DNA of 64,000 nucleotides from Synechococcus sp. MVIR-18-1. Its GTDB lineage: Bacteria > Cyanobacteriota > Cyanobacteriia > PCC-6307 > Cyanobiaceae. The first letter of the stretch is position 1. Every line of letters starts with the position of its first letter. Shown here piece by piece: positions 42,397-45,724 of this stretch. The position numbers were made by a program, and so were the translations under genes. The stretch is from positions 1,364,001 to 1,428,000 of the forward strand of contig NZ_CP047942.1 of NCBI RefSeq assembly GCF_014279835.1. Direction: 5' to 3'. A model generated the notes under the pieces. It ran no database searches and was not told the DNA's origin. It saw only the letters and a program-made list of their open reading frames with translations.

Positions 42397-42492
42397 ATGA
42401 GTGTGTATCGCTACAAACAAAAACACGGACATAGAAGATCCTTTCCCCAGTGGCATCGAGCTGCTGAAAAAGGGAGAGCACGAGCGGCCTGA
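42397..42492 (+). CDS. Possible 31-residue basic microprotein
   Basis: A 31-codon frame, ATG 42397 to TGA 42490-42492, encoding a very basic peptide (MSVYRYKQKHGHRRSFPQW, then HRAAEKGRARAA). Its stop lies inside a perfect terminator stem. The same transcript could instead be a non-coding RNA. Ribosome site is weak. Confidence 0.3.
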   Translation: MSVYRYKQKHGHRRSFPQWHRAAEKGRARAA

Positions 42493-42510
42493 GAAACCGC
42501 TCGTTTTTTT
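42480..42510 (+). terminator. Strong Rho-independent terminator
   Basis: ACGAGCGG/CCGCTCGT (42480-42487 and 42497-42504) with a 9-base loop and a run of seven T. It ends a plus-strand transcript that starts somewhere in 42340-42400, opposite no known gene. Confidence 0.85.
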
Positions 42511-42594
42511 GTCCTGTTATTCCTAACTGATTCCGCAAATTGACGGAATCCGATCAAGCTGCCTTTTGGACCTCAAGACAACGCAAAGCAAAAG

Positions 42595-42676
42595 AAAACC
42601 CCGCCAAAGGCAGGGTTTCTCGGCTTCTCTTTGGGCGTGTTGCCTTGTTTCCACTCCGTGAAGAAGCCCTCCTCAC
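42595..42676 (-). ncRNA. Yfr2-like small RNA, copy 2
   Basis: Read on the minus strand, 42657-42638 gives GGAGTGGAAACAAGGCAACA, identical over these 20 bases to the copy at 11014-11033, with the Yfr2 GGAAACA motif. A stem GGCTTCT/AGAAGCC encloses the motif region, and a terminator (AACCCTGCC-TTT-GGCGGGGTT, T-rich tail) ends it near 42595. Upstream bases 42676-42669 read GTGAGGAG, complementary to the Yfr1 motif. Exact ends are not known. Confidence 0.6.
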
Positions 42677-42762
42677 GAATGAATTATGTCTCAGAAATCT
42701 TGCTGAGCAAGTCCCCACGTATCAGTTGCTTGACTGATCTACAGAGACCTCATCATCATGGG

Positions 42763-42831
42763 GGAGGCCAACTCCTCACAAGGTTTGGCTCCTCACACCC
42801 CCCGAAGAAGGCTTAGTCGCCTTCTTTTTTT
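42763..42831 (+). ncRNA. Yfr1-like small RNA, copy A
   Basis: A 5' stem GCCAA/TTGGC encloses CTCCTCACAAGG; then the single-stranded motif CTCCTCACAC (42789-42798) followed by CCCC; then a terminator stem AAGAAGGC/GCCTTCTT (42805-42826) and a T7 run. This is the architecture of cyanobacterial Yfr1, known for an ultraconserved unpaired ACUCCUCACAC (here the first A is G). A TTGACT at 42730-42735 lies 18 bases before a CATCAT -10-like box. Yfr1 represses outer-membrane protein mRNAs in Prochlorococcus. Confidence 0.8.
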
Positions 42832-42868
42832 ATGCCTTGACTCAACCCATCTCAGATGCACTGCCAGG
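42826..42868. repeat. Partial duplicate of 43142-43199
   Basis: TTTTTTTATGCCTTGACTCA then ACCCATCTCAG and CTGCCAGG recurs near-identically at 43143-43201, where it is the terminator tail and 3' end of the Cys-rich small protein (minus strand). This copy has lost internal bases, leaving only ...GSASEMG coding fragments. Confidence 0.65.
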
Positions 42869-42891
42869 TTCGAGCACGAAGCGACAATCTC

Positions 42892-42984
42892 CTAGGCGTT
42901 CGCCAAGTTTGCGAACGCTGCCATGACCATGATTGCAATGATCACTGTGCCGCCAAAGAAAGCGATGTTTGGTGATCGGTTCAT
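42892..42984 (-). CDS. 30-residue membrane microprotein behind an HLR1-like repeat
   Basis: ATG 42984 to TAG 42892-42894 encodes 30 residues: a polar N-terminus (MNRSPN), one transmembrane helix (IAFFGGTVIIAIMVMAAFA) and a short end. AAGG lies 7 bases before the ATG. Upstream, an HLR1-type repeat (43022-43050) suggests light/RpaB control, as for photosystem genes. It resembles small photosynthetic or NDH/cytochrome complex subunits in style, but I do not recognise it. Confidence 0.6.
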   Translation of the reverse strand: MNRSPNIAFFGGTVIIAIMVMAAFANLANA

Positions 42985-43021
42985 TTGTAGACCTTGAATT
43001 GCGAGAGACTAACCAGTGAAC

Positions 43022-43050
43022 TTTACAAACCGTTACCAAGCTGTTACATT
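43022..43050. promoter_or_regulatory. HLR1-like RpaB site with three half repeats
   Basis: TTTACAAA-CC-GTTACCAA-GCT-GTTACATT: the first two match the HLR1 consensus (two TTACA(A/T)(A/T) units two bases apart) with one mismatch, and a third half site follows. It lies 38-66 bases upstream of the 30-residue gene. Confidence 0.6.
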
Positions 43051-43121
43051 ACGCAAAGCGTTCCTTGGACGGGATCTGCGCACGAATGTCGCTTGAGGGA
43101 GCGGTCTTCAAATCAATAAAG

Positions 43122-43152
43122 AAAGGTCTGTGTGGAAGCAGATCTTTTTTTA
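43122..43152. terminator. Bidirectional terminator
   Basis: AAAGGTCTG/CAGATCTTT (43122-43130 and 43139-43147, 8-base loop), T run on the plus strand and a T-rich TTTCTTTATT on the minus strand. It fits as terminator of the minus-strand Cys-rich gene. Confidence 0.75.
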
Positions 43153-43161
43153 TGCCTTGGC

Positions 43162-43392
43162 TCAACCCATCTCAGGAGCCCAGCCTGCTGTGCTTTGCCA
43201 GGTGGGCGCCCAGAGCTTGCAGGTCTTGGTGAGATGCTGGCCCTGCTGCAGCAATTGCTGCCTGATGTTGCACGCCACCAAGGTGCGGCAGTGCTGATCA
43301 ACCCCATGCCGAAAGTGCTGACAAGCCACACAAACGCTTGAACATCGGCAGTTGCTCAACTCCCGCTCGTCCACATAGCTCCACTCCTCCAC
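43162..43392 (-). CDS. Small Cys-rich conserved-looking protein
   Basis: The 76-residue protein has CRCSSVCVACQHFRHG and HCRTLVACNIRQQLLQQGQHL, then CKLWAPTWQ and GWAPEMG at the end. The spaced cysteines and His suggest a zinc or disulfide fold. I recall a similar small cyanobacterial family, but no function. A terminator follows directly and part of the 3' end is duplicated at 42826-42868. Confidence 0.68.
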   Translation of the reverse strand: MEEWSYVDERELSNCRCSSVCVACQHFRHGVDQHCRTLVACNIRQQLLQQGQHLTKTCKLWAPTWQSTAGWAPEMG

Positions 43393-43804
43393 AAACCCTC
43401 GGCATTAATACAGCTGTACTAGCAGAGCTTTGTCGACATCGCTGCTCGCAGGGGAATGCTTTAAGAAACCACCTTGTTGCCATGTGCCTCTCAACACTTG
43501 GAGGACACTGAATCTGCGTAGGGAGCTGCTGATCGCAATAAGGGCTAATGACGCTAATGGCATCAATCACTGGCCAATTGCACTCGCTTCATCAGCACTC
43601 GAAATCATGATCTCGATCGGAATCAGCCATCAGCTCAGACGGATTCCATCTGTAGCCAGGATCATCCAGATCACAAATCACCTGCCTTTAACCCATTATT
43701 TTCTGTTACCGCTTCAGCAGGGAGCGTAGGTTCGCTATCGATCAACCAACAAAATACTAATTAACCCCACCAAGGGCGCTACCTTCAGCAACCAATGACA
43801 AGAA
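43393..43804. other. Intergenic stretch without a supported gene
   Basis: About 410 bases. A plus-strand frame at 43430-43729 (99 codons) is open but its composition is not convincing. No hairpin or repeat stands out. Confidence 0.45.
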
Positions 43805-44128
43805 CTAAGGCCAGTCTTCAGGATACTCAATAATTGTCTCTGGCACTTTAGCTTTAGACTGACATTCTTCATTGACTATCCTATCCACAAACCTTCTAGA
43901 CCATTTTTCGTGTCTCCTAGCGTATGTAGTCTTGCATTCCTCTATATAGTCCTTTTTAGGATCAGAATGTTTCACCTCTGATTTAGTAAGGCACGTATAT
44001 TGATACTCTCCCTCTATCAAATCGTAAACTTCTCGACTGCATTGCTTGATAGAGCTCTTCAATCCCTGAGAGTTAACCGTACAAGGGATAATCAAAAATG
44101 CTAGCAATAGAGCTGTAGCCGCTTTCAT
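43805..44128 (-). CDS. Secreted Cys-rich protein, 107 residues
   Basis: A signal peptide (MKAATALLLAFLIIPCTVNS) is followed by a charged region with five Cys (IKQCSREVYD, YTCLTK, IEECKTTYARR, NEECQSK) and a Pro/Glu-rich end. It is probably a periplasmic or cell-surface protein with disulfides. AT-rich; no family known. Confidence 0.68.
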   Translation of the reverse strand: MKAATALLLAFLIIPCTVNSQGLKSSIKQCSREVYDLIEGEYQYTCLTKSEVKHSDPKKDYIEECKTTYARRHEKWSRRFVDRIVNEECQSKAKVPETIIEYPEDWP

Positions 44129-44492
44129 CGTTAGCGCAATAGGTGATCAAAGAGTTCTGGGCTTATGGTTGGATTAATCAACTACAAAAACGGAAAAGGC
44201 CAAGTGAAGTGAAGTAATGATGAATTATACCCAAAGCCACTGCCACTGTAGACATTTTTTATAACTTCAGCTAGCGTCATAGATCCCTAAATAAAACTCA
44301 AACAGCTGGTACTAACCAATACTTAGCCCCGCACGGGCGGAGACTTTGTTTAAGGGTAACTCTTTTACCAGATGCATCCCTCAGCCATCGCAAGCTTCTG
44401 AGCCAAAACGCATAATCAGAATCACATGGGATCAAACATATAAACGATGGCACTCTGTCATAATAAAATCACAAATATATTGGGCACAATTA
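44129..44492. other. AT-rich leader region between divergent genes
   Basis: About 360 bases between the secreted protein (minus) and the 44493 gene (plus), presumably holding both promoters. An upstream in-frame extension of the latter to 44346 does not look coding. Confidence 0.45.
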
Positions 44493-44912
44493 ATGGTTAA
44501 AGTTGAGCTTCGGGCTGCCAAGATTCCTGGATTGCCTGGCATCTTTGCAGATCATTATTGGCTTCTTGTTCTTCGTGGTGTCGAGAGCAGTCACAACCAA
44601 ACGTGTGATCGTTGGGAGATATGGCAACATCCTCACCAAAACAATTCTTGCTGGGGGCATCTTCATAAAAACCTCTTGGATCCCTATCAGGGAGTGGGAA
44701 ATGGACAATCTCGATTAATACAAAAATGGTTAAATGATGATGCTTTATTGATGGTTAAAAAGATTGAATCATCCCCAAGTAATTATCCATTCATTCAAAA
44801 ATATAGATACTGGCCAGGCCCCAACAGCAACACTTTTGCTCAATGGGTCGTAAGCGATAAAATGGAATTAGGTGCTCGCGCAATTGGCAAAAGCTTTCCT
44901 CTTCCAGAATGA
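44493..44912 (+). CDS. DUF3750-like hypothetical protein
   Basis: A 139-residue protein from ATG 44493 (MVKVELRAAKIPGLPG). Features are FADHYWLLVLRG, DRWEIWQ, NLLDPYQGVGNGQSRLI, and YRYWPGPNSNTFAQWVV, with the aromatic and Asn-rich motifs I associate with DUF3750. It may be a small lipid- or wall-related hydrolase-like protein; function unknown. A T-rich hairpin terminates it. Confidence 0.65.
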   Translation: MVKVELRAAKIPGLPGIFADHYWLLVLRGVESSHNQTCDRWEIWQHPHQNNSCWGHLHKNLLDPYQGVGNGQSRLIQKWLNDDALLMVKKIESSPSNYPFIQKYRYWPGPNSNTFAQWVVSDKMELGARAIGKSFPLPE

Positions 44913-44925
44913 GCTAGATGACAAT

Positions 44926-44949
44926 GCGATCAAGGTCTCGCTTTTTTTT
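44926..44949 (+). terminator. Terminator of the DUF3750-like gene
   Basis: GCGA/TCGC stem followed by eight T (44942-44949), flanked by longer complementary arms CTAGAT...CAATG and CATTGATCTAG (44914-44961). Confidence 0.7.
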
Positions 44950-45213
44950 CATTGATCTAGAAAGAGTGGCGTCATCACCTGCCCACCAAATGATCGTAAA
45001 TCAATGACTTCCGTCAATATCCCTGATAGAAGAGGGCATGAATGACCAGCAACAAAACCACTCAACTTGGTCGGGCCGAGTTGGGAGCTAAGCACATCAA
45101 CTGCTGTCTCGATTCATTGCCAACAGAACGATTAAGCGTATGGGGCAGAACGTTCAAGACACGTCTTGTCACTTGTTGGATTACCACCCAGCTTGGCTAT
45201 TGACTTATAAAGA

Positions 45214-45284
45214 TAGGGTCAACTCCTGACAAAGGATTGACTCCTCACACCCCCCAAAGAAGGCGTCAAACACCTTCTTTTTTT
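45214..45284 (+). ncRNA. Yfr1-like small RNA, copy B
   Basis: A 5' stem GTCAA/TTGAC (45218-45222 and 45237-45241), loop CTCCTGACAAAGGA, then the exact Yfr1 11-mer ACTCCTCACAC at 45240-45250 followed by a C run, then AAAGAAGG/CCTTCTTT terminator stem and T tail. The stem bases differ from copies A and C yet pair, i.e. compensatory change. A TATAAA at 45206-45211 can serve as -10, giving a 5' end near 45216. Confidence 0.8.
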
Positions 45285-45464
45285 ATGCCAAGCGGGTGGC
45301 CTACGTGGCACGCAAACTCTGGAAAACAGCCAAACAGAGCCGATCAACACTCATGTTTGTGAGGGGAGGTCTTGAATGAAAACACCATAAAAGGCGCAGA
45401 CATCAGTACAACCAAGTCTGTACGTATCAGTTGGTTGACTGAGTGGCACGTGTTTATTAGTCAT

Positions 45465-45535
45465 GGAGAAAGCCATCTCCTCACAAGATTTGGCTCCTCA
45501 CACCCCCGAAGAAGGCGGATTCGCCTTCTTTTTTT
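45465..45535 (+). ncRNA. Yfr1-like small RNA, copy C
   Basis: AGCCA/TGGCT stem around CTCCTCACAAGA, then CTCCTCACAC at 45494-45503 with CCCC, then AAGAAGGCG/CGCCTTCTT terminator stem (45509-45530) and T run. Its upstream TATCAGTTG-TTGACTGA (about 45425-45442) matches copy A's upstream bases (42720-42737), so promoter and RNA were duplicated together. Confidence 0.8.
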
Positions 45536-45724
45536 ATGACCTGGCATGGCACCAAGCCTGTCATCTGTGTGACCTTGCGATCAATGCATGGCTCTTCGCG
45601 GTGGTTGTCGGATGTTGACTCCCGTTCAAGATGGAGCTGTCAGCCATCGGTGGCTTGCCTTGTCTGATGTCTTTCCCCACCACACGCCCCCAGCAGCCTC
45701 GATGGGGCCATTAAAAGGATTCGC

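What the first reader, a model, noticed from the sequence alone, without database searches (positions are those of the whole stretch)
42763..45535. Three Yfr1-like RNAs with compensatory stem changes within 2.8 kb
Copies at 42763-42831, 45214-45284 and 45465-45535 share one layout: 5' stem, loop with CTCCT(C/G)ACA, unpaired CTCCTCACAC plus C run, terminator stem GAAGG...CCTTC. The 5' stems are GCCAA/TTGGC, GTCAA/TTGAC and AGCCA/TGGCT, i.e. different bases that keep pairing, which is covariation evidence for a real RNA fold. Yfr1 is, to my knowledge, usually a single gene in a cyanobacterial genome; a local family of three is unusual and could give dose or condition-specific control.
Basis: partly seen in the sequence, partly recalled or inferred. 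Interest (0 to 1): 0.8.

Follow-up and report, generated by a model that had tools for sequence, protein, structure and literature searches.

The report
Paired small RNAs opposing Yfr2
Three short RNA genes in a marine Synechococcus belong to a five-copy family that carries the Yfr1 pairing motif, often twice, and whose members often stand back to back with the gene of the RNA they should pair with, Yfr2, which suggests a repeated RNA-against-RNA control unit.

Summary
In detail: three small-RNA genes lie at 42760-42833, 45211-45286 and 45465-45537. They are not extra Yfr1 genes. The genuine Yfr1 is single and lies elsewhere (guaB-trxA), and the Rfam Yfr1 and Yfr10 models do not match these copies. 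They belong to a five-copy family in this genome (two more at 0.99 and 2.03 Mb). Layout: 5' hairpin with CUCCUCAC in the loop (altered in copy 2), a second CUCCUCACAC plus C-run in the linker, then a terminator. In the genus, 61 hits lie in 21 of 31 genomes, and 34 of 61 stand back to back with a Yfr2 gene at 72-81 bp. A promoter element has four exact sites in the genome, each before a family member. Copies 2 and 3 recur before ruvA in relatives, with RNA and promoter conserved above flanks. Best explanation: stand-alone sRNAs that base-pair with Yfr2 and with Yfr1-type mRNA sites. Motif, pairing principle and adjacency to Yfr2 are published for Prochlorococcus (Yfr10/12/18). The double-motif layout, divergent pairing and local amplification look like a new variant. 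There are no expression data.

The parts
42618..42682 (-). Yfr2 (Rfam Cyano-1) sRNA gene, divergent partner of copy 1; 5' end GTGAGGAG is complementary to the motif
   Evidence: RF01701, 56.1 bits, gathering 41; RF01701 also marks the Yfr2 place beside Yfr10 in MED4
42595..42619 (-). terminator of the Yfr2 gene
   Evidence: terminator scan
42683..42759 (.). 77-bp region shared by the divergent Yfr2 and copy 1
   Evidence: spacing 72-81 bp in 34 of 61 genus hits
42718..42736 (+). type A promoter element CGTATCAGTTNNTTGACTG; in copy 1 part of an ATCAGT-N6-ACTGAT inverted repeat
   Evidence: 4 exact sites in the genome, each before a family member
42730..42759 (+). predicted promoter TTGACT-18-CATCAT of copy 1
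   Evidence: consensus scan: 9 of 12 matches; 4 such sites found in the region against 3.8 in shuffles, so weak alone
42760..42833 (+). copy 1: double-motif Yfr1-like sRNA; loop motif 42772-42780, linker motif 42789-42798, terminator 42804-42827
   Evidence: R1 103.2 bits, one of the model's own training sequences; motif sites; terminator
45162..45182 (+). type B promoter element CGTCTTGTCACTTGTTGGATT upstream of copy 2
   Evidence: shared, with up to 2 mismatches, by orthologues in G012, G022, G006, G027
45211..45286 (+). copy 2: linker motif 45241-45250 intact, loop motif altered (CTCCTGACA, 45223-45231); no Yfr2 beside it here, though orthologues in three genomes have one at 81 bp
   Evidence: R1 87.2 bits, training sequence; synteny; RNA identity 0.94 against 0.13-0.56 in flanks outside the promoter, gaps counted as differences
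45423..45441 (+). type A promoter element upstream of copy 3
45465..45537 (+). copy 3: double-motif sRNA; loop motif 45477-45485, linker motif 45494-45503, terminator 45508-45531
   Evidence: R1 91.5 bits, training sequence; RNA identity 0.90 against 0.42-0.58 in flanks outside the promoter

Best explanation
The three copies are stand-alone trans-acting sRNA genes of about 65-75 nt from one family of Yfr1-motif RNAs. Each folds into a 5' hairpin with the motif CUCCUCAC in its loop (altered in copy 2), a linker that repeats the motif (CUCCUCACAC plus C-run), and an intrinsic terminator. Through the motif they base-pair with the GUGAGGAG 5' end of Yfr2 RNAs, one of which is transcribed back to back with copy 1, and so titrate Yfr2. 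They should also compete with or reinforce Yfr1 at GUGAGGAG-like, ribosome-site-like targets on mRNAs. The copies keep distinct promoter classes (type A for copies 1 and 3, type B for copy 2), so they likely set the Yfr1-motif/Yfr2 balance under different conditions. Shown here: structure, conservation, family size, divergent pairing with Yfr2, motif-dependent predicted pairing, promoter classes. Published for Prochlorococcus: physical pairing of Yfr1 and Yfr10 with Yfr2, and Yfr2 cancelling Yfr1 repression in an E. coli reporter. Inferred: that the same happens here, and condition-specific use.
For: Five own-genome paralogues at 87-103 bits against 17.8 for the next hit (the five are the model's training set). 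61 hits in 21 of 31 genus genomes. Covariation of both helices, of the 5' stem also on a plain alignment. 34 of 61 hits divergent to a Yfr2 at 72-81 bp (from the tables). The type A element has four exact sites in the genome, all before family members; one more at 2 mismatches, and 1 for the reversed control pattern. Orthologues of copies 2 and 3 keep the RNA at 0.94 and 0.90 identity and the promoter at 0.83 and 0.75, other flanks 0.13-0.58. Predicted pairing, averaged over the five own Yfr2 RNAs, is stronger than with scrambled motifs in 40 of 40 trials each for copies 1, 2, 3, the 2026-kb copy and Yfr1. CTCCTCAC is intact in the linker of 46 and in the loop of 33 of 51 aligned members. Published interaction and GFP assays in PMC6778093 (abstract, passages and section 9 read).
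Against: No transcript data. Single-molecule folds partly hide the motif: part of the loop motif (CCT) pairs in copy 1 and the 2026-kb copy, and the first six of nine linker-motif bases pair in the 2026-kb copy; the GTGAGGAG of Yfr2 is also mostly paired in 4 of 5 Yfr2 folds. True 5' ends are unknown, and such pairing could be regulatory. The 991-kb copy does not clearly beat scrambled controls (5 of 40 as strong). 23 of 61 hits have no Yfr2 within 200 bp, and 4 are convergent. Window copies 2 and 3 have no Yfr2 of their own. Four of 51 aligned members have CTCCTCAC at neither place. The sigma-70 scan of the region is not above shuffles.
Confidence: 0.78

Rival explanations
1. Dosage-only Yfr1 duplicates: the copies are derived from Yfr1, simply add Yfr1 activity on mRNAs, and do not act mainly through Yfr2.
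For: The 16 linker bases CTCCTCACACCCCCCG are identical in the genuine Yfr1, copy 1 and the 991-kb copy, with one difference in each of the others. The linker motif is more often intact (46 of 51) than the loop motif (33 of 51). 16 of 70 R2 hits in relatives overlap weak, sub-cut-off Yfr1 matches.
Against: The Yfr1 model does not find the window copies even at E <= 1. The family models give the real Yfr1 only 16.6 (R1) and 21.6 bits (R2). Repeated adjacency to Yfr2 rather than to guaB-trxA. A second motif in the hairpin loop.
Confidence: 0.12
2. Decaying or inert repeats: copies spread as terminator-bearing repeats and have no function of their own at this locus.
For: Copy number at the ruvA locus varies from 1 to 3 in the eight genomes seen. 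G001 has a 77%-identical trace of copy 2 that is not a model hit. G027 looks like a recombination deletion between copies 2 and 3. Loop motif altered in copy 2.
Against: RNA and promoter are conserved above flanks in orthologues of copies 2 and 3. Covariation. Linker motif invariant in all five own copies.
Confidence: 0.07
3. Members of the Yfr10 family proper, merely diverged beyond the Rfam model. This does not exclude the best explanation; it is a question of membership.
For: Motif in a hairpin loop, adjacency to Yfr2 and several copies per genome, as for MED4 Yfr10/12/18 (PMC2518516). PMC6778093 calls Yfr10 homologues poorly conserved in sequence and structure and reports one in WH8102.
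Against: RF02362 finds none of the window copies. MED4 Yfr10 has no linker motif and lies in tandem with Yfr2, not divergent. R2 gives MED4 Yfr10 only 11.5 bits. Four family hits in relatives overlap RF02362 matches, but at E 4.5-6.8, where 10 of 14 control genomes also ring.
Confidence: 0.4

Closest known systems
Yfr10 family (RF02362; Yfr10, Yfr12, Yfr18 of Prochlorococcus MED4)
   Same: Yfr1 motif in a hairpin loop, intrinsic terminator, several copies per genome, adjacent to Yfr2-family genes
   Different: No linker motif in MED4 Yfr10; tandem with Yfr2, not divergent; Rfam model does not match the window copies. Yfr18 not compared by sequence
Yfr1 (RF01116)
   Same: Two hairpins separated by a linker with CUCCUCACAC; 16 linker bases identical between Yfr1 and copy 1 in this genome
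   Different: Single gene between guaB and trxA; no motif in the 5' loop; model does not match the window copies
Yfr2 / Cyano-1 (RF01701)
   Same: Partner RNA; one copy lies at 42618-42682
   Different: Carries the complementary sequence GUGAGGAG
Other Yfr1-motif RNAs named in PMC6778093 section 9 (Syr5, Yfr104 of MIT9313, two TSS of Nostoc PCC 7120)
   Same: Share the motif in addition to Yfr1
   Different: Sequences not looked up; not compared

Membership tests
Yfr1 (RF01116) | Match to the Rfam covariance model | tested here: not met
   No match for the window copies at gathering, at E <= 10 on 42400-45700, or at E <= 1 genome-wide (1 match in G000, the guaB-trxA gene)
Yfr1 (RF01116) | Two hairpins separated by 16-20 unpaired nt with ACUCCUCACAC (PMC2190773 abstract) | tested here: inconclusive
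   The full 11-mer is in the linker of copy 2 only; copies 1 and 3 have G in place of the first A. The consensus linker is 13 columns, shorter than 16-20, and its 5' part pairs in single folds
Yfr1 (RF01116) | Located between guaB and trxA (most homologues, PMC6778093) | tested here: not met
   Window copies lie upstream of ruvA; the genuine Yfr1 lies between ORFs that I name thioredoxin and GuaB-type by eye from the translations
Yfr10 (RF02362) | Match to the Rfam covariance model | tested here: not met
   No match over cut-off in 31 genomes; the two G000 matches (E 2.55, 2.89) lie elsewhere; positive control MED4 Yfr10 99 bits
Yfr10 (RF02362) | Yfr1 motif in the loop of a stem (PMC6778093) | tested here: met
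   Copies 1 and 3 yes, copy 2 altered to CTCCTGAC; CTCCTCAC in the loop of 33 of 51 aligned members
Yfr10 (RF02362) | Adjacent to a Yfr2-family gene (MED4, PMC2518516) | tested here: met
   Copy 1, and 34 of 61 genus hits (divergent), 4 convergent; window copies 2 and 3 not
Yfr10 (RF02362) | Pairs with Yfr2; raised in darkness (PMC6778093) | not testable with these tools
   Only predicted pairing

The most novel reading that the evidence does not exclude
Marine Synechococcus carries a repeated, divergently transcribed sRNA/anti-sRNA module: a two-site (bivalent) Yfr1-motif RNA and its antagonist Yfr2 share one control region of about 77 bp with palindromic operators, and copies of this module were multiplied and given different promoters, so that the ratio of two opposing global sRNAs is set locally and repeatedly. 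One bivalent RNA could bind two Yfr2 molecules.
Probability: 0.4. Interest if true: 0.62.

Novelty: new variant of a known kind. Interest (0 to 1): 0.45.

Why it matters
PMC6778093 describes the Yfr1/Yfr2/Yfr10 network as adjusting carbon- and nitrogen-related metabolism in Prochlorococcus MED4, where no genetic tools exist. A multi-copy Yfr1-motif family paired with Yfr2 in marine Synechococcus, some strains of which are genetically tractable (recalled), would let the titration model be tested by deletion, and would show how a genome tunes two opposing global sRNAs by copy number and promoter choice.

Tried and rejected
Extra Yfr1 genes: rejected by model and position. Rfam Yfr10: tested with the MED4 gene as positive control, not met. 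Phage carriage: two exact-pattern scans of viral contigs gave 0, which would miss diverged copies; a distant BLAST against phages gave 59 records, of which the 20 listed match only 7-13% of the query at E >= 0.3, all in query bases 7-44, the Yfr2 terminator. Named genomes: an exact pattern in genome contigs gave 9 stretches, 5 titled Synechococcus and 4 titled as MAGs of other bacteria, not followed up. RNAduplex energies without accessibility were not informative and were replaced by the cofold control. RNAalifold on the plain 17-row alignment found no consensus. A 32-row alignment was made but not analysed further. CGRE1, the motif of yfr2 promoters bound by a GntR factor in PMC6778093: I could not obtain its sequence, so I do not equate it with elements A, B or C. 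Supplements of PMC6778093 (Figs S6, S7 on Yfr10 homologues) could not be read under the cap, nor were the Gierga 2009 and 2012 or Lambrecht 2018 papers seen (recalled). That the divergent double-motif RNA is undescribed rests only on library searches and on the parts read: PMC6778093 (abstract, passages, section 9), PMC2518516 (passages, section 10), PMC2190773 (first of four parts), PMC5069720 (passages, section 8), PMC7368042 and PMC2662882 (passages). Row choices: one search used 43 sources that hold 51 of the 61 hits, one of them cut by a contig end; searches used 17 chosen rows (16 of the 51 plus one from another genus); one search used 7 and 5 orthologues; the tables behind one search were copied by hand. 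The ruvA loci of the 23 genomes without a member there were not examined.
Full report
What is there. Each has a 5' hairpin whose loop holds CTCCTCACA (CTCCTGACA in copy 2), a linker CTCCTCACAC followed by a C-run, and a terminator hairpin with a T-run. CTCCTCACA occurs 5 times in the window against 0.60 expected, and the folds have z-scores of -3.6 to -4.1.

Not Yfr1. Rfam reports no Yfr1 in the window at gathering or at E <= 10 around the locus. Genome-wide the Yfr1 model finds one gene, at G000:C1:867466-867522, 69.2 bits, between ORFs that read as thioredoxin and GuaB. Each of 31 genus genomes has exactly one Yfr1 over the cut-off. Kinship is not excluded: the 16 linker bases CTCCTCACACCCCCCG are identical in that Yfr1, copy 1 and the 991-kb copy, with one difference in each of the other three, and 16 of the 70 R2 hits in relatives overlap Yfr1 matches of 16-30 bits, below the cut-off (hand count).

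A five-member family. The own genome has 25 CTCCTCACA sites, against 8 for the reversed control pattern. A covariance model from the five paralogues (R1) gives those five 87-103 bits; the next hit has 17.8 bits and the genuine Yfr1 16.6. In the genus, R1 gives 61 hits in 21 of 31 genomes at E <= 0.001, and a broader model R2 gives 70 hits in 24 of 31. In the family, 48 of 250 sampled genomes (completeness 80% or more, stricter filters) have a hit, in 6 of 40 genera, with one or two weaker hits per genome outside the own genus. Two members in another genus show a loop CTCCTCACACA and a linker ACCTCACACA (L122, L123).

Structure. Across 51 aligned members, 95.7% of pair cells are standard pairs, 12 of 15 pairs have changes on both sides, and 94 cells change on both sides against 17.6 in shuffles (0 of 500) and 7-34 in slid versions. 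That alignment was fitted to the model. On a plain MAFFT alignment of 17 chosen rows, 17 of 85 cells of the 5' stem change on both sides (0 of 500 shuffles), but the counts of such pairs and of pair types are not above shuffles, and RNAalifold predicted no consensus there. In the five own paralogues alone only one pair covaries. CTCCTCAC is intact at both places in 32 of 51 members, in the linker only in 14, in the loop only in 1 and at neither in 4.

Partner next door. Rfam finds Yfr2 (Cyano-1) at 42618-42682 on the minus strand, 77 bp upstream of copy 1. The genome has five Yfr2 copies; three of the five family members stand back to back with one. In the genus, 34 of 61 hits have a divergent Yfr2 at 72-81 bp, 4 a convergent one at 52-71 bp, and 23 none within 200 bp. 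Yfr2's 5' GTGAGGAG is complementary to the motif. Predicted binding, averaged over the five own Yfr2 RNAs, is stronger than with scrambled motifs in all 40 trials each for copies 1, 2, 3, the 2026-kb copy and Yfr1; for the 991-kb copy, whose loop motif is degenerate, 5 of 40 scrambles are as strong. Single-molecule folds pair part of the motifs, and also the GTGAGGAG in 4 of 5 Yfr2 RNAs, which counts against free accessibility unless the real 5' ends differ.

Promoters. CGTATCAGTTNNTTGACTG occurs with no mismatch at four places in the genome, each 41-42 bases before the start of a family member (copies 1 and 3, 991 kb, 2026 kb); the only further hit has two mismatches, and the reversed control pattern has one. 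Copy 2 has another element, shared with its orthologues in four genomes, and some distant members have a TGGCACNGTGCCA-like palindrome. The simple sigma-70 scan finds TTGACT-18-CATCAT before copy 1, but such sites are not enriched in the region.

History of the locus. The copies lie before ruvA and rpsO. Seven other genomes have members there: 3 each in G006 and G022, 2 each in G012 and G016, 1 each in G001, G007 and G027; the other 23 genus genomes were not examined at this place. In G006, G022 and G012 the copy 2 orthologue has a divergent Yfr2 at 81 bp, which the window lacks. G027's single copy has copy 2's upstream and copy 3's downstream sequence, as expected from recombination between them. 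Orthologues of copy 3 (7 rows) have identity 0.90 in the RNA, 0.75 in the promoter and 0.42-0.58 in other flanks; those of copy 2 (5 rows) 0.94, 0.83 and 0.13-0.56, gaps counted as differences and the lowest value due largely to insertions, deletions and the G027 junction. This suggests that the copies are kept by selection.

Comparison with what is known. MED4 has Yfr10, Yfr12 and Yfr18 with the Yfr1 motif, each beside a Yfr2-family gene, and their pairing with it was proposed in 2008 (PMC2518516, passages and section 10). PMC6778093 (abstract, passages, section 9) shows that Yfr1 and Yfr10 bind Yfr2, that Yfr2 cancels Yfr1 repression in E. coli, and that Yfr10-like RNAs exist in WH8102 and elsewhere. 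I checked two MED4 genes directly: Yfr10 at the published coordinates scores 99 bits with RF02362, has the motif only in the loop, and lies in tandem with Yfr2; Yfr12 (82.7 bits) likewise lies in tandem with a Yfr2-family gene. RF02362 does not match the window copies. So this works like Yfr10 or Yfr1, but by the tests made it is filed in neither Rfam family.

Mechanism. Most likely each copy is an independent sRNA that titrates Yfr2 and acts on Yfr1-type targets; distinct promoters suggest condition-specific dosing. Binding and expression in this organism are inferred.

Noticed in passing
L002, L005, L017, L020 (G000:C1 near 378.7, 927.6, 1569.9, 2000.3 kb): CTCCTCACA also lies in the terminator hairpin after four nearly identical genes (1169-1206 bp shared at 99.7-100%) whose translated end looks like psbA (by eye). 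PMC6778093 lists psbA among Yfr2 pull-down targets, so Yfr2 might pair there.
   Followed up: partly
window 42994-43156: Stretch conserved at 77-81% in two relatives at the same locus, ending in a terminator-like hairpin with T-run and followed by nearly the same ATGCCTTG.CTCAACCCATCTCAG as copy 1; perhaps a remnant unit or another small RNA.
   Followed up: no
window 42892-42984, minus strand: Possible 30-residue hydrophobic peptide gene between copies 1 and 2, MNRSPNIAFFGGTVIIAIMVMAAFANLANA; not searched.
   Followed up: no
L034, L035, L037, L039: Exact copies of the family's linker-terminator pattern in MAG contigs titled Phycisphaerae, Gammaproteobacteria, Crocinitomicaceae and Polaromonas; possibly mis-binned Synechococcus contigs or chance.
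   Followed up: no
upstream of L106, L108, L110, L111, L089:3812, L093:3977: TGGCACNGTGCCA palindrome (one mismatch in L108 and L089) about 60 bases before family members, and a similar ACTGGCACATGTGAC upstream of MED4 Yfr2.
   Followed up: partly
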